Assembly (NCBI GenBank): GCA_950295325.1
Contig: OX485803.1
Coordinates: forward strand, 75,345,554 to 75,409,553
Length of the DNA stretch: 64,000 bases
Origin: Polytrichum commune
Taxonomy: Eukaryota; Streptophyta; Polytrichopsida; Polytrichales; Polytrichaceae
Direction: 5' to 3'
Shown piece by piece: positions 13,050 to 60,322 of this stretch (position 1 is its first letter; every line of letters begins with the position of its first letter). The position numbers and the translations under genes were made by a program. The notes beneath the pieces were generated by a model that searched no databases, had not been told where the DNA came from, and saw only the letters and a program-made list of their open reading frames with translations.

Positions 13050-13777
13050 GGGCCACTTCACACACAAGCCAAGTGCAATAACCATGTAAGCGTGAGGGCC
13101 CTTAATTCTCATCCAAAGGTCCTACCACTGACATGGTTTGCCAGAATTCGGATCAAGCTTACCTCTCAGAGGTGGGCCTAATGCAAATTTTGATAGACCA
13201 GGAAACATTATCTTCATAACCTACCATGTAAGAATCCATGTAGACTGTTTCATCCATGATGGTTTCCTTGACCCCTTAGACCTTCACCTTCTTGTGCCAA
13301 GTGAATTTGGACGTTCGCGACCAGTCTTCTACCAATGAGAGATCTTAGAATGCGATGGTCACGGGCCTTCTCGTGTGAAGTGAACTTGGACATTTGCGAC
13401 CTCTTCGACCAATGAGAGATCTTAGAATGTGATGGTCACGGGCCTTCTCATGTGAAGTGAACTTGAACGTTCGCAACCTCTTCGACCAATGAGAGATCTT
13501 AGAATGCGATGGTCACAGGCCTTCTCGTGTGAAGTGAACTTGGACATTTGCGACCTCTTCGACCAATGAAAGATCTTAGAATGCGATGGTCACGGGCCTT
13601 CTCATGTGAAGTGAACTTGAACATTCGTGACCTCTTCGACCAATGAGAGATCTTAGAATGCGATGGTCACGGGCCTTCTCATGTGAAGTGAACTTGGACA
13701 TTTGCGACCTCTTCGACCAATGAGAGATCTTAGAATGCGATGGTCACGGGCCTTCAGTCACGTGTGTAAAGTGGCCC
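13050..13777. mobile_element. PIF/Harbinger-like MITE, subfamily P1b, with internal expansion
   Basis: Left end gggccacttcacacacaag, right end gtgtgtaaagtggccc. Flanked by TAA on both sides (13047-13049, 13778-13780). Its right half carries a 77-bp unit repeated about six times (13294-13755). The sibling at 33517-33858 has only one unit and is 342 bp, so the array accounts for the extra length. Non-coding. Confidence 0.85.
13294..13755. repeat. 77-bp tandem array, about six units, inside a MITE
   Basis: The phrase gtgaagtgaac recurs at 13375, 13452, 13529, 13606 and 13683, exactly 77 bp apart. A slightly longer first unit starts at 13294. Each unit contains gaccaatgagagatcttag and atggtcacgggccttctc, which is the subterminal part of the host MITE. 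Confidence 0.95.
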
Positions 13778-29074: not shown

Positions 29075-29138
29075 GATTAGTGAGCGGTTAAGAAATCTGA
29101 AATGAGCCAGTTACCGAGTGGTTAAACTACTCCGTAAT

Positions 29139-29633
29139 ATGACTTGGTGTTGGCAAGTTCCAGAACCAGCCAACTGTGAGTTATATACTGGAGGATATTT
29201 GTTTTCAGCCTTATATAGGTTATATCGGTCAGGATACAGAGGAAATGGATTGTATATCACCCCTAATGCCGTGAGTATCCCAAGAGAGTTCAAAGAATTA
29301 TTTTTAGCTTTACCCTTAGATGTGCAGCAAAACATTACCAATAGAGTTTGGAACGGCGGAGAGGAATATAACGAAGTAATTGTGAGAAACAATCACCCTG
29401 TTATACCCTTATCACTCCGATTTTTATTTGCAATCTATGGGAGATTAAAAAGTGCTACTTCTTTAGTGGTGCCAGCCGGCACAGGAATGTGGAAAGGAGA
29501 TAAAATATCTAGGACAGAGTATAGGTTTGTTTTTGGAGCACCAGATCTCAGGGCAAGACTATTAATACCTGACTTCATGGACCAAAAACCTATGTATACC
29601 AATCCCATAGACTTTAGAATGATATGTTTGTAG
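29139..29633 (+). CDS. Retrotransposon ORF of unknown function
   Basis: The frame opens after TGA near 29103; GTG at 29118 or the first ATG at 29139 (MTWCWQVPEP) could start it. It contains ITPNAVSIPREFKELFLALP and a C-terminal RLLIPDFMDQKPMYTNP. I recognise no domain. It is in the same frame as the gag ORF at 29706 but separated by three TAG codons in the stretch 29631-29648, so it could be a separate protein or the N-terminal part of a polyprotein interrupted by stops. Confidence 0.45.
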   Translation: MTWCWQVPEPANCELYTGGYLFSALYRLYRSGYRGNGLYITPNAVSIPREFKELFLALPLDVQQNITNRVWNGGEEYNEVIVRNNHPVIPLSLRFLFAIYGRLKSATSLVVPAGTGMWKGDKISRTEYRFVFGAPDLRARLLIPDFMDQKPMYTNPIDFRMICL

Positions 29634-29705
29634 GGATCCTAGAACTAGTTAGAGTTAGTCAAGCTGGAATCTGCTCATGAAAAATCTCATTCTCAAACTG
29701 CATCC

Positions 29706-30434
29706 GTGAGGAAGGCAGCTAACGCTAAAGCTAGAGAAGATAGAGCAGCAGCTAGAGAGTATAGGAAGCGAATACAAGAGAGGAGAAGAAGTTGGGTTCA
29801 ACCATTTTTAGATGTAGTAAGGAGAATTTCCGGTAGTGGTTCAGGAGGGAATTTTCAGACACCCGTAGATAAGCCTACAACGAGTGGTGAGAGAGAATTC
29901 TTATCCCCAAAAGTTTTATTTCCTGATGAGACACCTCGCACCAGTTCACCTACTCCACCATTGTGGACTACCGCCTATGAACGCACACCATCCCCTCTAC
30001 TCGACACAACGGTTTACGCCAATATACAAGGCAACCCATTGTTTACACCTTATACACCGTTAGTACCCATAACACAATTAATACCCCCTCCCCCACTTAA
30101 TACACGATTAACACCTCCTCCCTTACACACCGTAGCACAACCTGTAGTACCGCTTCCCAATATGGCGGCTAATCCTCCTAGGATCAATAGTGTAGTAAAC
30201 TTACCCTATTTTCAGGGTAGACCAGGAACAGATCCTGATGTCCATGTGAGGAAATTCGAGATTGCATGTGCTGCAAATAGCGTACCTCCGGACAAACAAA
30301 TGGAAGTATTTGCAGCCACTTTGCAAGAGAACGCATTCTTATGGTTTTCCCGTCAGCAACCATTTGCTGACTGGAACGACCTTAAGAATGCATTCCTAAT
30401 TGTCAACAAGTTCATTATCAATGTAACCACATGA
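29706..30434 (+). pseudogene. gag-like ORF, 3'-truncated
   Basis: The N-terminus is a basic, arginine-rich coiled segment (KAREDRAAAREYRKRIQERR). A long proline-rich linker follows (about residues 70-155), then a retrotransposon gag core: VNLPYFQGRPGTDPDVHVRK, KQMEVFAATLQENAFLWF and DWNDLKNAFL at about residues 160-230. This matches the Retrotrans_gag pattern of plant Ty3/gypsy elements. The match stops near 30395, after which the frame runs 13 codons into unrelated sequence. Protease, reverse transcriptase, integrase and 3' LTR are absent, so the element is broken. Confidence 0.75.
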
Positions 30435-32286: not shown

Positions 32287-33288
32287 ATAAGATAACGCCC
32301 GTTTTATGTATACCGGCGTGAATGTGAGCCCGTTAACCCTATATTGATCTCGGGAATCCGAGATGCAATATTGGGTGTTATGCCTCCTGTGGGAGGTGGG
32401 CTCTGGTGTAGTGCAAAATAATTTCCACCTTATGGTGGGGGGATAGGGTTTTGTTTGTTGTCAAGTTTCCTTTTATTCAAGACCAAATAGGTAAGGTATT
32501 TAATGGCATTTTGGTGTATGTTTTTCATGAGGGTTTTGATGTGGGTTTTGGGGATTTTCAGGTTGGTTAATTGTTCGATAGAGTTTTCGTGAATAGCGCC
32601 TCTTACTCCTGCGGTGATAGTAATGAGGGGGTTGGTATTCCATCCGTTGGCTCTTAGTGTGGTAATTAGTGGGTCATATTTGTTGTGTTTGTGTGTGCGG
32701 GCCTGTTCGGGGAATCTATCGTGGCAGTAGGTGAATTCAATGAATTGTACGGTGTGGCTTGGGGAGGGTAGTATTGGAGTTTGCGTTTGGTTGGGAGTTC
32801 TGATAATGCACATTATGTCTGGTCTTAATTTGGCTTGACATTGACATGGTTCTTGCGTACATGTACATTGGAGGAGCCAATCGGGAATTGTTTGGTCTTG
32901 GGGTTGGTTGGGTAATTTACCCACATTGGTCAAGGTGAAGAACCTGGTGTTTTTATTGGCTTGTAAGGTTTGGGCAATGAGGTGGGTTGCTTTATTGTGT
33001 CTTGCGATTCGTAGGCCTTTTAAGTATGGGTGTTCGCATGTGGATAATAGGTGTGGCCACGTGTCTCTATCATTGGTGCGACATAGTGTGCAGTTGGGGT
33101 TTTGGTATTTAAGGGGCCAAAATATATTTTTCCTGTGGTTGCCCATGTATTGGGCATATCTAAATTTTAGAGTTTGGGTAATTTGTGTGTCGGGTATTTT
33201 ATCATGTTTCCAAAAATGGTTGGAGAGTTTTTGATTGATTTCTTCATTCGAGAGCCACTTGGCTACGTATGGGAATTTTTGTTTGGCG
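32287..33288 (-). mobile_element. 5'-truncated non-LTR retrotransposon (1002 bp)
   Basis: Flanked by an exact 14-bp duplication, ctgcatgagaatat, at 32273-32286 and 33289-33302. It is inserted in a family D repeat. On the minus strand it is open from the 5' truncation point to a stop at 32430, followed by a ~143-bp 3' UTR. The 3' UTR has a cctcc/ggagg and an atctcgg/ccgagat stem-loop. A second, decayed 3' end of the same family lies at about 50760-50870. Confidence 0.9.
32430..33287 (-). pseudogene. ORF2 C-terminal fragment with restriction-like endonuclease
   Basis: The frame is open across the whole insertion, 285 codons ending at 32430, with no stops. In order it shows a zinc motif CX2CX9HX4C (CTLCRTNDRDTWPHLLSTC), a cysteine-rich stretch (CTCTQEPCQCQ), RPDI, then IEFTYCHDRF and HNKYDPL, and a conserved ITAGVRGAIHE. 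A CCHC followed by R/KPD, an acidic residue and K..KY is the layout of the C-terminal restriction-like endonuclease of R2/NeSL/Dualen-type non-LTR elements. Most plant LINEs (L1, RTE) instead use an N-terminal apurinic endonuclease. The reverse transcriptase lay upstream of the truncation and is lost. The clean frame suggests recent insertion. Confidence 0.8.
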
Positions 33289-33516: not shown

Positions 33517-33858
33517 GGGTCACTTCACACACGAGCTAAGGGCCGTGACCATGTAACTATGAGGACCCTTGATTCTTATCCAATGATCATTCCACCGATA
33601 CAATTTACCGGAAATTGCATTAGGCCTATATCTTCAAGGTGGGCCTGATGCATATTTTGGCTAACCATTCATGAAACATTATTTATAGTCTACCATGTAG
33701 GAATCCATGTAGACTTATCATCCATGATATTTGCGTTGGGACCTTAGGCCTTCACCTTCTAGTGTGAAGTGAACTTCGATGGTCTCGGCCTTTATGACCA
33801 ATGAGAGATCTTAGAATGCAATGGTCATGGGCCTTCAATCTTGTGTGTGTAATGGCCC
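33517..33858. mobile_element. PIF/Harbinger-like MITE, subfamily P1b (342 bp)
   Basis: Left end gggtcacttcacacacgag after TAA (33514-33516); right end gtgtgtaatggccc. The right flank is TAG rather than TAA, because the next MITE begins immediately. Single-unit version of the 13050 copy. Confidence 0.8.
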
Positions 33859-33860
33859 TA

Positions 33861-51401: not shown

Positions 51402-51473
51402 TATCAGAGCGAGGTTTCGATCCTCGGACCTGTGGGTTATGGGCCCACCACGCTTCCGCTGCGCCACTCTGAT
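51402..51473 (-). tRNA. Initiator tRNA-Met (CAT)
   Basis: 72 nt on the minus strand fold into a complete cloverleaf without a CCA end. Initiator features are present: A1-U72 start (atcagag/ctctgat), three G-C pairs next to the loop cccataa with C33 and anticodon CAT, and a T-loop starting with A (atcgaaa). The T-stem is cgagg/cctcg; the usual plant form is ccagg/cctgg, so the pair has changed in a compensated way. Internal box A (tggcgcagcgg) and box B (ggatcgaaacc) are intact. A T5CT5-type terminator follows at about 51358-51370. Confidence 0.97.
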
Positions 51474-51712
51474 GCGGATGTTAAATACATTGAATGTTTT
51501 AAGTATTGATATAGTTTCCACGGCTACTGAAGCTCTTATTGACCCCCGTGTTTCTATAATTTCAAGCTCCTTCGCAACTACAAGGCAATAAATTGTGCAT
51601 AAATTCAGCGTAGATAACTTTGAGAGAATGACCTTAAATTCGCAGCAAGAGGAGCTCAAAGTCCTTAGAAAAAAACTTCTTAATTGCAGGCGAAGAATTG
51701 AATCATAAGCAT

Positions 51713-52031
51713 TAGAGTTATCCATTAATTCAACCGGAGTTTTAGTAGGGAGTTGGTTGTTTCGCATGCATAACTTTCCATGTTCGGTAAGTTCTAGGTG
51801 CATGCTTGGAGTCAATGTGGAGGTTTGAACGAAGGACATTCCATATTGGTTCATTGGGTACCAAGATGTCAAAATGAGTTTGGCCCTCAATGAACCAATA
51901 TGGAATGTCCTTCGTTCAAACCTCCACATTGACTCCAAGCATGCACCCAAAACTTACCGAACATGGAAAGTTATGCATGCGAAACAACCAACTCCCTACC
52001 AAAACTCCGGTTGAATTAATGGATAACTCTA
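51713..52031 (-). repeat. Near-perfect long inverted repeat, 144-nt arms
   Basis: Arm 51713-51856 and arm 51888-52031 are reverse complements with three differences, separated by 31 nt. All three differences would be G-U pairs in a minus-strand RNA. A transcript would form a very long double strand, a substrate for DICER-LIKE enzymes, or the structure is a foldback transposon. No target duplication is visible at its ends. A 211-codon minus-strand frame crosses the right arm and the tRNA and is not credible as a gene. Confidence 0.9.
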
Positions 52032-52577
52032 TTGTGTGCCTTCTGTTTTGATGACGGTAAATGCTAGCTGTTGTAGTGTGTTATGCAATGTTATTCAGGT
52101 TTTGAAGTATAAATGAGGATTGCATGCAAGGACCTTTGTACCTAGGCGGAATCACCCTAATGTGAATATAGTTTAAAATGATATAAACCCAAATTGTAAC
52201 TTGGGCAAACAAAAATACTCTCACCTCGACATACCCACCAATATGAGTATTTGATTGGCATTACAATTTTGACACCCTCGGGTAGGTTCTATGATACCAT
52301 TGTTGATGTTGATTATTGATACCATGCATTCACCTTTAAACTAGACGCAACACTGGTTGCAATTCACTGGGACAGAAGAACAATCAAAGTATAGCAGGTT
52401 TAATACGCGCCTTCTGAGTCTCCTGAACAAGACTTTGGTAGCAGAGGTCACGCACATGTAGTCAATTGTTGCTTGAGCCAAAAGACTTGCCTAAAATTGC
52501 CAAGCACCAAGTCCACACTGATGCAAATTTGACAGGTTGCACCATTGCAATGTCATGGTTCGCTAAACACATAGGGT
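52032..52577. other. Non-coding stretch
   Basis: No gene, terminal repeat or family motif recognised. Confidence 0.4.
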
Positions 52578-53060: not shown

Positions 53061-53576
53061 TCACATGACACAGTGCCAGGTTTTATAAATTCTTCGTTCT
53101 GTACAGATCATACCCATGGCCTCGCCTGTTGCAGGACAAGAGGTATATTAGTATTTTGCGCATGAATAACCTACAAGTTTTAAAAGAAAGGAAGAAAGCC
53201 ACGCATAACTCAGTAGTATATTCAGAGCACATTGAGTACAGCGGACTACAACTTGCCTGTCATGTCCCTCAAACTCCATGCCAGCGATTCTGGAAGTAGC
53301 TAGGCTGGGATGGACGTTTGGGAGTGATCATCTTCAATGATGCACGACCATGTTTTACAATATACACATTGCCTTCAAATCAAGCCCATGACTTCCCCTG
53401 TTGCAAGACAAGAGGTACAATATGATTATTCTGCATATGCGCATATTATAGATTAAAACTCAGCAATGCACATTTTCTATAAGCCATGCTCATGTTAAAA
53501 GTGCATTTCCACATTTTCACTACCAAATTTTACAACACATTCATAGCCTTCAAATCAAGCCCAATGTGTCTTCACC
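53061..53576 (-). repeat. Triplicated acceptor/terminal-exon cassette at the 3' end of the pseudokinase gene
   Basis: Read on the minus strand, a unit with (t/c)ttg...tgcaacag then g(g/c/t)gaag/gag occurs three times, with acceptors ending at 53576, 53398 and 53126. Each is followed by a short frame in the right phase with its own stop: GEDTLGLI, GEVMGLI and GEAMGMICTERRIYKTW. The donor acag/gcaagt of the main exon (53706/53705) recurs at 53257/53256, after a possible 33-nt exon (53289-53257) that is also in frame. Confidence 0.7.
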
Positions 53577-55203
53577 TGTTGCAAGATAGAAGGTACATGC
53601 ATGGTATTATGGATATAGCGCATATTCGAAAAGCCATGGACATCCTAAGAGTACGTTTCCAGATCTCAACAATTCTCGAAGGAGAAGAACACACAAACAA
53701 CTTGCCTGTCATGACTTTTGCTTTCATTTGCCGTAACTTCATGCAAATGTCTCGGAACTTAGGTCGGCAGTGAGCATCCGGGTGCCAGCATTTTTTTATC
53801 AACTCCGCCAAATAGTCAGGGCAAGAAGCAGGCAATTGGGGTCGACAACCATGGACAACTGCCTCTTTCAGATTGGAGATGAGGACATTCTTATACGGAG
53901 TCTCTCCTGTCAGAACTTCGAAGCACACCATACTGAAGCTGTACACGTCGCCTTTCTCCGAATCATAATTGGATCCATGCCCCCCCACATGGTAAGCGAG
54001 AAGCTCAGGAGCTCTCCACCGATTCCTACGTACATTGAAAATGCCGTGATTGTCGTCTCGATCTCTCCTCGTCAAGGAGAAGTGCGCCACTTTCACATTC
54101 AGAAACCCTAATTCCGACAAGCGCTTCTCCCTCACCACCTTGAACATCACATTCGATGCACACAGGTCTCGATGCGCCAATCCAACATCGTGCATGTACT
54201 TCATCGCCTCCGCAATCTGGTGCAGGATGTCCAGAGACACATGGAGAGAGAAAGGGTGCCAATCACCATGGCCAGCGCCATGAGGAGCTTCCTTGGCCCT
54301 AATATCAGCCATGAGTCTACAGAGATCGCCGCTCATGAGCTCCATAACCAGGCAATACGAATCATGTTCATCGTAAACTCCAATCATAGGCACAATGCAA
54401 GGATGTTTAAGTTTTGCCAAAGTGGCAGCATTTTTCTTAGCCGTATGGCTCTCCCATCCGGAGAAGACACACTTAGGGTAGACTTTCACCGCCACTCGTT
54501 CTCCAAGAAACGTCGACATATACACAGTGGCATGTGTCCCTTCTCCAATCCTTTCTTGCAATGTCGACAGATCATCAGGGTTAATGTCAAAGAAAACTGT
54601 TCTATCATTCAACCGTTGTGACAGATATGTCGCGAGAGCTCTTTCGTACTCGGAGTAATCGCCATCCATATATGTCAGCTTCGACTTCAAGCTCCGACGC
54701 TCCTCATTCGCATAAGTAGAAAATTTCTCAAGCTCGGATTTAACTCTTTCTGCGAGGGTTTCGATCACCTCTTGCCTTGCGTCTCCGGTGATGACCGCGG
54801 TGCACCATAACAGATTCAAAATCCGCAACGAGAAGGCTTCTTTGCAATTCACCAGCCATATGGCTGCCTTGAGCCAATTTTTCTCGCAGCAGTGTTCCAG
54901 TAGCCTTTCGGAAGCAATCACTATGCGGTAAAGCTCGGTTAGGGCAACTTCGCTAGGTTTGGTGTCTAAGTTCATTTGTTTTCTGACCTCCTCCAGAGAA
55001 ATCTGGAGTGCCGTAACCAAATGCTGGCACTGCAATGTGTTGAGTTGCAGTTTTCTAGATGGAAATGGATCGGCGGTGCTGGACGGGTAGGCGTTTCGTG
55101 TGGAGGTTAGATCTGACATTCTCTGGACCGAATCCCGGCAGAGCTGGAAGTATACATCTCGACTGTCTCGCTCCGCGGTTTCCTGTTCGCTCGCCTGGTG
55201 CAT
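53550..55203 (-). CDS. MLKL-like protein: helical N-terminal domain plus pseudokinase
   Basis: Main exon 55203-53706 starts at the first ATG in frame; the frame opens after TGA near 55288. Spliced through a 130-bp GC-AG intron to 53575-53550 it gives 507 residues. Residues 50-200 are helical and lack known catalytic motifs, resembling the paralogue upstream and plant DUF1221/MLKL-type proteins. The kinase-like domain has GEGTHATVY (220-228), VAVK (Lys240), HRD (344-346) with Asn351, and APE (398-400). The DFG motif reads HFS (374-376), and the alpha-C region (KKNAATLAKL) lacks the usual glutamate. Loss of the Mg-binding Asp predicts little or no phosphotransfer. Without splicing the frame runs on to 53572. 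It lies 958 bp from its paralogue, same strand. Confidence 0.88.
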
Positions 55204-55288
55204 CGATGAATCCTGTAGCAAGCAAATCAAATAGCTCCATGAGGTCCTCCCGTGCAGCGCAGTGGAGATGATGTCTTTTACTCAAAGA

Positions 55289-55575
55289 GCACCCTTATTC
55301 AAAACACCTACTTTTGGGTGGAAAGTGGACACTTTTAGTATTAGGTCCATAAGGTCCTCTACCTAAGCATGGTAGGCATGTCTTATTCAAACATGTCCTC
55401 GTTTTGGGTGGAAAATGGTCCAATATTCTGAGGTAATATGAACAAGTTTACTAGTATTGGTTCATGAGCCTCAAGTCATCCCATGGTAGACATGTCATAT
55501 CATTCAAACACCTATTTTTGGGTGACAATTGGTTCCATATTCTCCTAAAATTCAACTTTCTAGTATTATTTTAAG
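55289..55575. repeat. Three degenerate ~100-bp tandem units in the kinase intergenic
   Basis: Units share attcaaa(a/c)a, then ttttgggtg and later atggtag(g/a)catgtc, starting near 55293, 55384 and 55502. They lie directly upstream of the pseudokinase gene and so may include its promoter. Confidence 0.55.
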
Positions 55576-56160
55576 GACTGGTACGGACTAGATGACCACC
55601 ATAACAAATGTGGATAACGAGCCGCAAGAGCGATGAGTCATCCACCTACTCGAGCTCTTTGTCAATCAAAACCAATCAACTTGACACGACTGGTCAAATG
55701 GGAATCATGGATGTTATCACACGCCTCCATGGATGAGTTATGAATCAGATCACCCCTAAATTTGCTCTCGGATGAGCCCAAATGAGTGACTGGTTATGAC
55801 GTCGCATTGGCATAACATTGCTAAGCTCTACTTGCCACTTATCCTAGGCAGTGTAATAATTTGGCCAATTGCTAGGAATAAACATGTGATTCTCATAAAA
55901 ACGACGGCTTTAGTCAAGTTTGTTCCACAACAAGCCTTAGGTCTGGATCCTCATGAAACATAATGGTGTCTCTTATATTTAGAATGGGCGAGGGAGCATA
56001 AGGGCTTAGTAAATTATGTTGATGTGGGTTGGGATAGCCAAAAAGTCAATGCTCAACACCGACTCCACACTAACCATTAGTTTAGACACACTAATATAAC
56101 TACTTAAGAAGATCATACATAGTTTTGCTCTTTGAACCTTTGTCACAAATAGAGATTTAG
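55576..56160. other. Intergenic between the two kinase genes
   Basis: Contains the 3' flank of the upstream kinase gene and probably the distal promoter of the downstream one. No motif could be assigned. Confidence 0.4.
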
Positions 56161-58339
56161 TCACCTCAATGTCATTCTTATGGCAATGTTGGATTCGTAT
56201 AAGATTTGCTTATCAACTGCAAATTTTTTATAGATTTGTTGCACATCAGAAGAGGCCAATCCTCCTTGATGTAGCAACTCTAACCTGCATGTTTCAAAAG
56301 CTTGTAGTATCACTTGCAACTTTGAAAGGTGAGAATTAAGTTGCCGATGTGCTACTTTCTCTGAATCTGCAAACTTGAAGTTACTTGTCATGGAATGAGA
56401 TTTCACCTCTTCGATGGTTGAATCGGTAAATCCCTCCTCATACGAGCCGGTGAAATGGTAGTTCTTGATGTGGTGAAGCTCTAAACAGATTTTAGTAAAC
56501 CCCGGCCGCTTGTTGGCATCCCCATTCCAACACGTCTCGATCAACTGAGTCAACTTCCTCAAGAAATTAGACGGGTAGTTGGAGTAGTCATGGAACAATC
56601 GACTCCACTGCGGGCGGGCACCATTTCTAACCTTCTCGCGCAACTCCTGCAAGTTCTGGAGATGGCGGAACGGCTCAAGGCCCGTCAAAATCTGGTAGCA
56701 CACAAGCGCGAACGCATAAACATCCACCGTCCGCGTGTACCGCCCCTGCAGAATCTCGGGGGCTCGGTACCGCGTCGTCCCCACGTAAGGCTTGTACATC
56801 AAAGTGGAGCTTGCCACATTCGACTCCGAGCATCCGAAATCCACCAGCTTCAAAATCACGTATCCCTCTCGGGCGAGCTCGGGGTCTGACACGGGCCGAA
56901 CGACAATGTTGGACGGCTTCATATCGAGGTGCGCGACTTTCTCCTGGTGCAAGTACCGCATCGCCTCCGCTAGCTGCAGAATCATGTCCAGCGCGACGAG
57001 TAAGGGGAACGGCGGGCACCGTGCTCGAAATCCTTGCCGCCGCCGCCGCCAGCAAGTTCTGGTGTTGATTAGCGAGGATAAGTTGGACCTCACCAACTCC
57101 ATCACCACCATGTCCGGGTCTCCGGAAACGCTATCTCGAATGCATCCCATCACGGGCACAATGTGGGGGTGGTGGAGCTTGGATGCCGTGGAGGCCTCAG
57201 CCAGTGAGGACTCCGGGTTCCTCCGTAGGAAAGTCTTCACGGCTAATGATTCGCCGCACCATTCGGCCTCATACACTAATGCGCAGGCTCCGGTGCCCAC
57301 GAGTTTATCCTCTATAACTCGAAGCCCTTCGAAATTCAAGTAGATAACGTCCGGTTGTGCAGCATCATCTGTAGTCCGGGTGGGCAAACCCTACATAGTT
57401 TTGAACAGGGGCAATCCTCAAATTATGATGAATTAAGGCTCCAAGATTCATGACAACTTGTAACAATAGGTTCATAATAAAAGCATGAAGCTATAGTATC
57501 CCACGACCCATGCATATATAATAAAATTCCATTTAATAAGACATCATTGGATTGAATCATCTTTTGGAGCTCCTCATGATCGCAACAAGACCAAATGATT
57601 CATTGACAGAATATGACTCAAGCGTAACAAAAAGAAATGAAACTGCTGTAGTAATCAAAACCTGGGTCGCTGCAACCCCGGGGGCATGATCTGTAGCACC
57701 AATGATCGCTGGCAACCTCTCTGTCACGTATCTCGCAAGATGGCAAGCTTTCAGTGTCTCCACACCCTCCACGAGGCCCAAGACATGCAGGCTCTTGAGA
57801 TTCTGCTTCAAGTGGTGTCGATCCTTGTCGACCGCACTTGTCCATTTCGTCCGCAACTCCTGCGCTTCGCATTCCTCCAAGAACAGCGTCGGCTTACGGG
57901 TGATCATCCGAGTGCACCAGATAAACTCCCGGATGCGCAAGAAGAAAGCCTCCTTGCCATCCACCACGTAGAAGGCGGTGAGCAGCCACGAGGACTCCTC
58001 GCAACATGATCGCATGAGGTTGGTGGCCTCTTTCACCACGCGGTAAAATTCCTTGAGAAGCTCCAGTTGTTGTGGTTGTGTCCATAGGAGAAACACTTTG
58101 GAGAACACATGTTCCACGCATTGAAGGAGAATCTCATTCAGGAGTTGGTTGAGGTGGAGGCAGAAGCATCGCGAGCCTCGCGTGGAGGAGATTAGGGATT
58201 GGGAGGCTTTGGCTTCCGCAGCGATGAGCTGTATATACGCCAGTAACTTTGGTCGAGTCTGCACAGGTGAACTTTTCCTAAGAAAACTAAAGACTCTCAC
58301 CAGAACATCGTTGGACATCCCAAGAGTGCTTCGCAACAT
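56161..58339 (-). CDS. Protein kinase with helical DUF1221/MLKL-like N-terminal domain
   Basis: Two exons, 58339-57662 and 57390-56161, joined in phase 0 by a 271-bp GT-AG intron (donor cag/gttttg, acceptor tag/ggtttg), give 635 residues. The start ATG is 12 bases after an in-frame TGA. Residues 30-220 form a helical, cysteine-containing domain (FYRVVKEATNLMRSCCEESS, KEAFFLRIREFIWCT) shared with the downstream paralogue. The kinase domain has GTGACALVY (258-266), Lys278, Glu291, HLD with Asp382 and Asn387, DFG (410-412) and APE (436-438). All catalytic residues are present; HLD instead of HRD makes it a non-RD kinase. A ~100-residue C-terminal tail follows. The linker intron is absent from the paralogue. 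Likely cytoplasmic; substrate unknown. Confidence 0.9.
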
Positions 58340-58589
58340 GTCGCAATATATTCACGAGAGAGAACAAGACGAATGACCGACAATTAGTTACGAACTGTCT
58401 GGTTATACGTTCATGTCAACCATTCCCACTGTTTCATCGTTTGCTCCGGTTTTCATTTGGCGAACTTCACCTTGATGTGGTTGGCCAACCCCGTTTTAAC
58501 AGTCTTCTCATACCAACATTTCATCAATAATTATCTCTGCAGAACTCTTGGTTCACGCATTGAAATATAATTCCATTACTCCAGTAACG

Positions 58590-58690
58590 TTCGTGAGTGA
58601 GGCTGCACAGCTGAACAGTTCCTTCAAAGAAATCCAAACACTCTCGCCAGGAAATCATTTGGACATCCCAGGAGTGCGCCTCTGCAACAT
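58590..58690 (-). pseudogene. Broken duplicate of the kinase gene's 5' end
   Basis: The minus strand from ATG 58690 reads MLQRRTPGMSK and then a stop, parallel to MLRSTLGMSND at the start of the intact gene. DNA similarity continues for about 100 bp through ctgtgcag. The surrounding ctctg/gagaacaagac also matches. It is a relic of tandem duplication. Confidence 0.65.
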
Positions 58691-60322
58691 GCTTTCAACA
58701 GAGAACAAGACAACTGACAGACAAGTTACAGATTGTGGTAGTTTTCGACTTTTCTTAGTTGTCTTCTTATCATACTAGAAAATAAATTATCTCTGTTTGC
58801 ATCGACGTGACCGACATGAATGTTGATGAGGATGAGATCTTTTGCAGGTTGTCGGAGGGTAATAGTACGACGCCATCATTTCACCCTTTTCACAGCCCTG
58901 GCCACAACTGAAATAACATATGCTACATGTATCAGACGGAAATATAAGGAGGTGCATTTCGACATCAAAAATCGCGCACTACTGCACTCACAAATCCTTG
59001 TAGACGAACATTGTTCCCAACACGTGACACACCCCATGCATCTCCCACCCTACACTTGAGCCTCTAGCTACAGAACTCTAATTAGAAAGGAGCAGCAGCA
59101 GCAGCAGCAGGAGTATTCCCCTACTCCTTCCGTTGATACCCCGAAGTATTTTGCAATGATTGAAAGAGCCACAAACAACTTGACTTTATAAATTAGGCAC
59201 AAAAATTCCAGTAAACAAGAAGTCCTGCACAGACATCCCGAGAACTAAACAACTAACTAACTAACAAACTGCATGCAGGATTGCTCGTAGAAATCACAAA
59301 TTTGCAAGGACTCAAGAATGTAGTAGGACTCAAAAACTTCCAAACTTTTCTGGGGCTCCAGTTTTCGCCAGAACTAGGTTCCTACCAACAAACGCATAAC
59401 AAGAAGGAGGTTGCAAGTCTTGATGATATCGATGCAACTGGTATTGATACATACACAAGCTGGATTATTTAGTGGCACTTCGCGAGAACGTTGATCAGCG
59501 CATGCGCCGTTAGCCCCATGAACTTGGATCAGAGATGTGAAGGTTAATAATTAGCCACGCACTATCCCGGCGACCTTAGTACTGCAAATTTGAAGAGACC
59601 CGCGTCGATCGCAAATGGTCACCAGTAACTTTACCACCCACAAGAATTACGATTTGTGCTCACAATTAGATCACGGCCGACACTGCCCGCTCGATCGTGC
59701 ACAGGAAGTTGCGCCGTGTACTGGAACATCAATCTTACAATGGCCGCTGTCGATAATTTATACCGAATGCTTAGTCATCGCCCGGCCGACTACAAATTCT
59801 TAGTACAGACACTTAGTCGAACAGTACGCTTGCCGAAACTAACTATGACACCAAGATACCGGAGGATGTTGTTGTTTGGTTCGATACAAAATAATTATAT
59901 TTTGGAAAGACTGTTGCCGCGTGTCGTGTCCATATTGGGCAATCCAACGTGGACGTTAGCCTTCGACTCTCAGACATCACTCTGCGGTATATGAGGGAAG
60001 CGTCCAACTCATCAGGATGCTTACTAGCTACTACTACTCTTGATGAATTTAAGATTCCTGGATATACTGGCAACCAATATCATACATGCAAGCAGCAGCT
60101 TGATGAGCACATCTTATGCAGCTGGAGTATCATGAATGAAGTTCTTTTCAAACTCACAGACACACTAAACTGTGCAACTTGTCAATTAGTGGGGTTTGAG
60201 CTCCGAATCTGGGCGATGGAGGAGAGATTAGTGAATACTTACAAATGATCCACTAAGGACGCTGACCACAGTAGCAACAGAAGATTTCGTCAACTGGCTT
60301 GGCTTCCCCAATTATCGACTGT
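58691..60322. other. Upstream region of the kinase cluster, no gene recognised
   Basis: An (AGC)n microsatellite lies at about 59091-59110. Frames at 59656-59994 and 59949-60248 are open for about 100 codons, but no family is recognised and codon order looks random. Confidence 0.4.

What the first reader, a model, noticed from the sequence alone, without database searches (positions are those of the whole stretch)
53550..58339. Tandem pair of MLKL-like genes, one active-looking kinase and one pseudokinase
Both proteins share a helical N-terminal domain and a kinase fold. The upstream gene keeps Lys278, Glu291, Asp382, Asn387 and DFG. The downstream one has HFS in place of DFG and no obvious alpha-C glutamate. 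In animals RIPK3 (kinase) activates MLKL (pseudokinase with a four-helix N-terminal executioner domain); plant MLKL-like/DUF1221 proteins have the same helical plus pseudokinase architecture. A head-to-tail pair of this kind could be a self-contained kinase/executioner module. Function is inference; the residue changes are directly visible.
Basis: partly seen in the sequence, partly recalled or inferred. Interest (0 to 1): 0.72.

Follow-up and report, generated by a model that had tools for sequence, protein, structure and literature searches.

The report
Adjacent plant MLKL-like kinase/pseudokinase genes
Two neighbouring plant genes encode related proteins of the plant MLKL (cell-death immunity) family, one with the residues of a working kinase and one that has lost key ones; the family is known, and that the two work together as a pair is only a guess from their position.

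Summary
Both genes lie on the minus strand. Gene B (58339-56161, one GT-AG intron, 635 aa) keeps K278, E291, D382, N387 and DFG as stated, but HRD is HLD. Gene A (55203-53550, 507 aa if a GC-AG intron is spliced, else 543 aa) keeps K240, HRD and N351 but has Asn at the alpha-C Glu position and HFS for DFG. They are homologous at about 30% identity, so the split is old. Pfam DUF1221, the HeLo domain of plant MLKLs, is the best N-terminal match of both: A just above the curated cut-off, B below it. B's kinase best matches PDB 6KA4 and 6LBA (recalled as Arabidopsis MLKLs), and a profile of both N-domains finds 6LBA. AlphaFold models were unusable, so the four-helix fold is untested. An MLKL-type protein with intact kinase residues is known (wheat Pm13, PMC10951266). 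The RIPK3-MLKL analogy is weak: B carries its own HeLo-type domain and no RHIM-like core. No plant genome was searchable, so conservation of the pair could not be tested.

The parts
57662..58339 (-). Gene B exon 1: N-terminal helical DUF1221/HeLo-type domain, 226 aa
   Evidence: Open frame; DUF1221 22.4 bits, E 9.5e-5, below the cut-off of 25; homologous to gene A N-domain
57391..57661 (-). Gene B intron, GT-AG, phase 0, 271 nt
   Evidence: Splice sites join the two frames in phase; GC 34% against 52-53% in the flanking exons; no transcript evidence
56161..57390 (-). Gene B exon 2 (with stop): kinase domain with K278, E291, HLD382, N387, DFG410, APE, and a C-terminal extension
   Evidence: Pkinase 138.5 bits; best PDB match 6ka4, E 2.8e-25; residues checked
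53706..55203 (-). Gene A main exon: DUF1221/HeLo-type N-domain (residues 51-139 match) and pseudokinase domain with K240, HRD346, N351, N258 for alpha-C Glu, HFS374 for DFG
   Evidence: DUF1221 26.4 bits (cut-off 25) and PK_Tyr_Ser-Thr 150.5 bits; 6lba E 4.1e-28; residues
53576..53705 (-). Probable GC-AG intron of gene A, 130 nt (AG|GCAAGT donor)
   Evidence: Splice model; the donor string recurs at 53249-53261 and the acceptor string at 53398-53406 and 53126-53134; no transcript evidence
53550..53575 (-). Probable last exon of gene A (ends ...MTGEDTLGLI, stop)
   Evidence: inferred from sequence only
53104..53447 (-). Two further degenerate copies of the gene A 3' end (acceptor plus last exon)
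   Evidence: 53343-53447 matches the first copy (53518-53626) at 78%; 53104-53159 matches the second copy (53376-53434) at 78%
58577..58724 (-). Degenerate partial copy of the gene B 5' end (58236-58383), with a stop in frame
   Evidence: 73% identity over 158 aligned positions, E 9e-17; frame shown

Best explanation
Two old tandem paralogues of the plant MLKL (DUF1221-kinase) family sit head to tail in a plant genome. Each joins an N-terminal helical HeLo-type domain, probably a membrane-acting cell-death/immune executioner, to a kinase-like regulatory domain that would hold it inactive until triggered. In gene A the kinase-like domain has lost the alpha-C Glu and the metal-binding DFG Asp and is probably a signal-dependent switch without efficient catalysis, like the pseudokinase domains of Arabidopsis MLKLs. 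In gene B it keeps all the catalytic residues checked (non-RD, HLD) and is probably an active Ser/Thr kinase, as predicted for wheat Pm13. Shown: gene models (by sequence), residues, family matches. Inferred: HeLo fold, autoinhibition, membrane action, role in immunity. Not shown: any action of B on A.
For: DUF1221 is the best N-terminal Pfam hit for both; PF06760/DUF1221 is given as the HeLo domain of plant-specific MLKLs (PMC8559963, passage). PDB sequence matches 6ka4 and 6lba rank first and second for B's kinase exon, and 6lba and 6ka4 second and third for A. The two-row N-domain profile has 6lba residues 28-116 as its best match among 177,635 PDB sequences, E 0.0012. Residues. A-B homology at about 30% identity.
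Against: B scores below the DUF1221 curated cut-off (22.4 against 25) and A only just above (26.4); the matches cover only the first half of the domain model (3-101 and 49-100 of 215). A's own N-domain match to 6lba is very weak alone (6.6 bits, i-Evalue 26), and B's exon 1 alone finds no MLKL (one chance hit, E 1.1). No reliable fold. The top PDB sequence for A by total score is an EGFR construct matched twice, and many other TKL and tyrosine kinases follow, so the kinase match alone is not specific. No expression or functional data; species unknown.
Confidence: 0.62

Rival explanations
1. Self-contained kinase/executioner module: gene B phosphorylates the gene A pseudokinase to release the gene A HeLo domain, a plant counterpart of RIPK3-MLKL.
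For: Same orientation with 957 bp between the coding regions and opposite residue status; at about 30% identity both have stayed open for long.
Against: B has the same executioner-type N-domain as A, unlike RIPK3 (recalled architecture); no RHIM-like core in either (pattern recalled); neighbouring tandem paralogues are common (general knowledge); conservation of the pair untested. An Arabidopsis MLKL phosphomimic is reported not to have caused cell death (as cited in PMC11932488, passage).
Confidence: 0.12
2. Ordinary members of a tandemly duplicating DUF1221-kinase cluster, A drifting toward a pseudokinase or pseudogene, with no functional link between the two. (Not exclusive of the best explanation.)
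For: Degenerate partial copies beside both genes: 3' end of A in three copies, 5' end of B in two.
Against: A keeps an open frame of 543 codons with Gly loop, beta-3 Lys, HRD, APE and the alpha-F and alpha-I residues, which random decay would not spare.
Confidence: 0.3
3. Relatives of the kinase domains of kinase-NLR receptors, acting as decoys or sensors for pathogen effectors rather than executioners.
For: Kinase-type NLRs are among the subtypes enriched in non-flowering plants, and a moss kinase gave a modest, variable response in leaves (PMC11218826, passages); whether the Pm13 N-domain acts as executioner or sensor is open (PMC10951266 Discussion).
Against: No NB-ARC was seen: 0 of 10 further ORFs scanned matched Pfam at E 0.1 or better, but six other ORFs of 120 aa or more and all short exons were not scanned. 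The species is not known to be non-flowering.
Confidence: 0.15

Closest known systems
Plant MLKL / DUF1221-kinase family (Arabidopsis AtMLKLs; PDB 6LBA and 6KA4, whose identity as AtMLKLs is recalled)
   Same: N-terminal DUF1221 domain followed by a kinase-like domain; best or near-best PDB sequence matches
   Different: In the displayed 6KA4 alignment the beta-3 Lys is Arg, the alpha-C Glu is Gln, HRD is HGE and DFG is GFG; gene A keeps Lys and HRD, and gene B keeps all catalytic residues checked
Wheat Pm13 (MLKL_NTD-kinase resistance protein)
   Same: MLKL-type N-domain with a kinase predicted to be active, like gene B (PMC10951266)
   Different: Pm13 falls in an MLKL_NTD cluster distinct from the DUF1221-kinase cluster in that paper, while A and B hit DUF1221; no pseudokinase partner gene is described in the parts read
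Animal RIPK3-MLKL pair
   Same: An intact kinase and a pseudokinase, the latter with an N-terminal four-helix domain
   Different: RIPK3 lacks the executioner domain and has a RHIM (recalled); B has a DUF1221-type N-domain and no RHIM-like core
Plant tandem kinase-pseudokinase proteins (such as Yr15)
   Same: Pairing of an intact with a degenerate kinase in plant immunity (PMC10951266 Discussion)
   Different: Those are fused in one protein; here there are two genes with separate stops

Membership tests
Plant MLKL (DUF1221-kinase) | N-terminal DUF1221/HeLo domain by sequence, gene A | tested here: met
   26.4 bits, curated cut-off 25, residues 51-139, model 3-101 of 215
Plant MLKL (DUF1221-kinase) | N-terminal DUF1221/HeLo domain by sequence, gene B | tested here: inconclusive
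   22.4 bits, E 9.5e-5, below the curated cut-off; homologous to A's N-domain; joint profile finds 6lba, E 0.0012, exon 1 alone does not
Plant MLKL (DUF1221-kinase) | Four-helix bundle fold of the N-domain | tested here: inconclusive
   Models helical there but pLDDT 41.5 and 35.1
Plant MLKL (DUF1221-kinase) | C-terminal kinase-like domain related to the family | tested here: met
   6ka4/6lba first and second for B, 6lba/6ka4 second and third for A; no tree could be built
Plant MLKL (DUF1221-kinase) | Pseudokinase (missing catalytic residues), gene A | tested here: met
   Alpha-C Glu and DFG Asp missing
Plant MLKL (DUF1221-kinase) | Pseudokinase (missing catalytic residues), gene B | tested here: not met
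   All catalytic residues checked are present; Pm13 shows that MLKL-type proteins with intact residues exist, so B is filed as a DUF1221-kinase with an intact kinase, not as an MLKL pseudokinase
Plant MLKL (DUF1221-kinase) | Cell-death or disease-resistance function, oligomerisation | not testable with these tools
   Needs plant experiments
RIPK3 (for gene B) | Kinase without HeLo domain, with a C-terminal RHIM (recalled) | tested here: not met
   B has an N-terminal DUF1221-type domain and no [VIL]Q[VILAC]G core
RIPK3-MLKL-type pair | Kinase phosphorylates the pseudokinase; pair conserved | not testable with these tools
   No genome held for the window; no biochemistry

The most novel reading that the evidence does not exclude
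A genetically linked two-gene necroptosis-like module in a plant, in which an active HeLo-kinase (B) phosphorylates or co-assembles with a HeLo-pseudokinase (A) so that two executioner domains are released together.
Probability: 0.1. Interest if true: 0.75.

Novelty: new member of a known kind. Interest (0 to 1): 0.35.

Why it matters
No upstream activator of plant MLKLs was named in the passages I read. A linked pair of one catalytically intact and one degenerate family member would be a natural place to test whether family members activate each other. Without evidence that the pair is conserved, it is one more pair of DUF1221-kinase genes.

Tried and rejected
AlphaFold: gene A alone (collected in 47) and the gene B N-domain with one related row (collected in 45) gave pLDDT 35.1 and 41.5; no fold search was made because such matches would mean nothing. 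Relatives in public contigs: viral contigs with P0001, viral contigs with the N-domain alignment and genome contigs with the same alignment gave no confirmed relative (1, 59 and 165 pattern matches). Considered and set aside: B as a RIPK3 (architecture and RHIM pattern fail); A and B as one fused tandem kinase (separate stops, 957 bp apart, though a spliced fusion transcript is not excluded); recent duplication (only about 30% identity). Literature: 10 searches; their listings showed no paper on a plant MLKL kinase/pseudokinase gene pair, but one search listed only 10 of 257 papers, and the library lacks most subscription journals; the DOI I recalled for the founding plant MLKL paper is not held, so that paper is recalled only. 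A notebook entry over-read PMC11218826 on MLKL in every species; the report words it as the passage does.
Full report
What is there. Two genes lie head to tail on the minus strand. Gene B runs from 58339 to 56161 with one GT-AG intron (57661-57391, phase 0) and encodes 635 aa. Gene A begins at the ATG at 55203. The GC-AG model is inferred from sequence only; the donor string recurs once and the acceptor string twice in nearby degenerate copies of the 3' end. A 543-codon open frame is far beyond chance: the longest stop-free run in 30 simulated sequences of the same length (first-order Markov) was 216 codons. Gene A and both exons of B are richer in G+C (48-53%) than the B intron (34%) and the 957 bp upstream of A (40%).

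Residues. B also keeps the glycine loop, the +2 Lys, APE, the alpha-F Asp and the alpha-I Arg; only the HRD Arg is changed (HLD, a non-RD kinase). A keeps the glycine loop, K240, HRD, N351, APE, alpha-F Asp and alpha-I Arg, but has Asn258 opposite B's alpha-C Glu in the pairwise alignment, and His374-Phe-Ser in place of DFG. By these criteria B looks active and A looks like a pseudokinase; neither was tested biochemically.

Relationship. A matches B in the N-domain (32%, E 3e-11) and the kinase domain (30%, E 4e-38) by tblastn against the window, and residues 81-500 of A align with 87-541 of B at 30% identity by blastp. They are paralogues that separated long ago. Beside them lie degenerate partial copies: the 5' end of B again at 58577-58724 (73%), and the 3' end of A at 53343-53447 (78% to the first copy) and at 53104-53159 (78% to the second), so the locus has a history of tandem duplication.

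Family. Pfam gives DUF1221 for both N-domains: A 26.4 bits (cut-off 25), residues 51-139; B 22.4 bits, E 9.5e-5, residues 95-146, below the cut-off. Both matches lie in the first half of the model. PF06760 is given as the HeLo domain of plant-specific MLKLs in the NLRtracker description (PMC8559963, passage). Among solved structures, B's kinase exon matches 6ka4 and 6lba first and second (E 2.8e-25, 8e-24); A matches 6lba and 6ka4 second and third (E 4.1e-28, 1.7e-27) behind an EGFR construct matched in two stretches. Both lists (the best 60 of 2215 and of 1515) go on with many other kinases, so the kinase match alone is not specific. 6lba aligns with A in both domains in order, but the N-domain stretch is very weak alone (6.6 bits, i-Evalue 26). 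A two-row profile of the N-domains finds 6lba residues 28-116 as its best match (E 0.0012; the next is 0.027), while exon 1 of B alone finds no MLKL. That these two entries are AtMLKL structures is recalled; the tool names them 'Protein kinase family protein' and 'F22L4.1 protein'.

Fold. The direct test of a HeLo bundle gave no answer: pLDDT 41.5 for the B N-domain (226 aa, helices only) and 35.1 for gene A. These models support nothing beyond helical tendency.

Function. Arabidopsis MLKLs contribute to resistance mediated by TIR-type NLRs (PMC9950082, passages), and their HeLo domain is said to elicit cell death (PMC10951266, Discussion). Pm13 of wheat combines an MLKL-type N-domain with a kinase that has all key residues; nine mutant sites from eight resistance-loss mutants lie in its kinase domain. 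So each protein here has a precedent: A resembles the pseudokinase type, B the intact type. A survey of 33 green organisms, bryophytes included, reports NLRs, degenerate NLRs and NLR-associated proteins (a class that includes MLKL) in all tested species (PMC11218826, passage); the passage does not say that each species has an MLKL. The most likely function is immune or cell-death signalling by each protein, with the HeLo domain held in check by the kinase-like domain; this is inference from family.

The pair. The attractive idea that B activates A rests on adjacency and opposite residue status alone. Against the RIPK3 analogy, B has its own executioner-type N-domain (sub-threshold) and no RHIM-like core (pattern recalled). 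Conservation of the arrangement, the key test, could not be run: no genome is held for this window and the collections open here are viral and bacterial/archaeal; three scans returned no relative.

Surroundings. Ten further ORFs gave no Pfam match at E 0.1 or better: nine of the 15 ORFs of 120 aa or more listed outside the two gene models, plus one of 112 aa. Six were not scanned (three of them overlap genes A or B), nor were short exons. So no NLR gene was seen next to the pair, but one is not excluded. The species is not known; a plant is inferred from DUF1221.

Verdict. Observation confirmed; family assignment supported, with a modest N-domain score; module hypothesis open and unproven. New members of a known kind, moderate interest.

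Noticed in passing
51710-52034: Near-perfect inverted repeat, arms of 155 nt, 95% complementary with 15 nt between them, no other copy in the window by blastn beyond a 16-nt match; could be a foldback element or a source of a long hairpin RNA.
   Followed up: partly
51402-51473: tRNA-Met gene (anticodon CAT) on the minus strand, found by ARAGORN and Rfam, about 240 bases from the inverted repeat.
   Followed up: no
53104-53626: Three copies of the 3' end of gene A, each with a splice-acceptor-like string and a short reading frame that would end the protein MTGE..., which could serve as alternative last exons.
   Followed up: partly
55368-55543: Two copies of a roughly 62-nt repeat (77%) in the region upstream of gene A.
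   Followed up: no
13299-13755: Tandem array of a 77-bp unit, about 5.9 copies at 92% match, with a diverged copy of part of it at 33755-33860.
   Followed up: no
29118-30434 and 32430-33146: ORFs that by eye look like retroelement pieces (gag-like, and a Cys-rich C-terminus of a LINE-type protein); no Pfam match.
   Followed up: no
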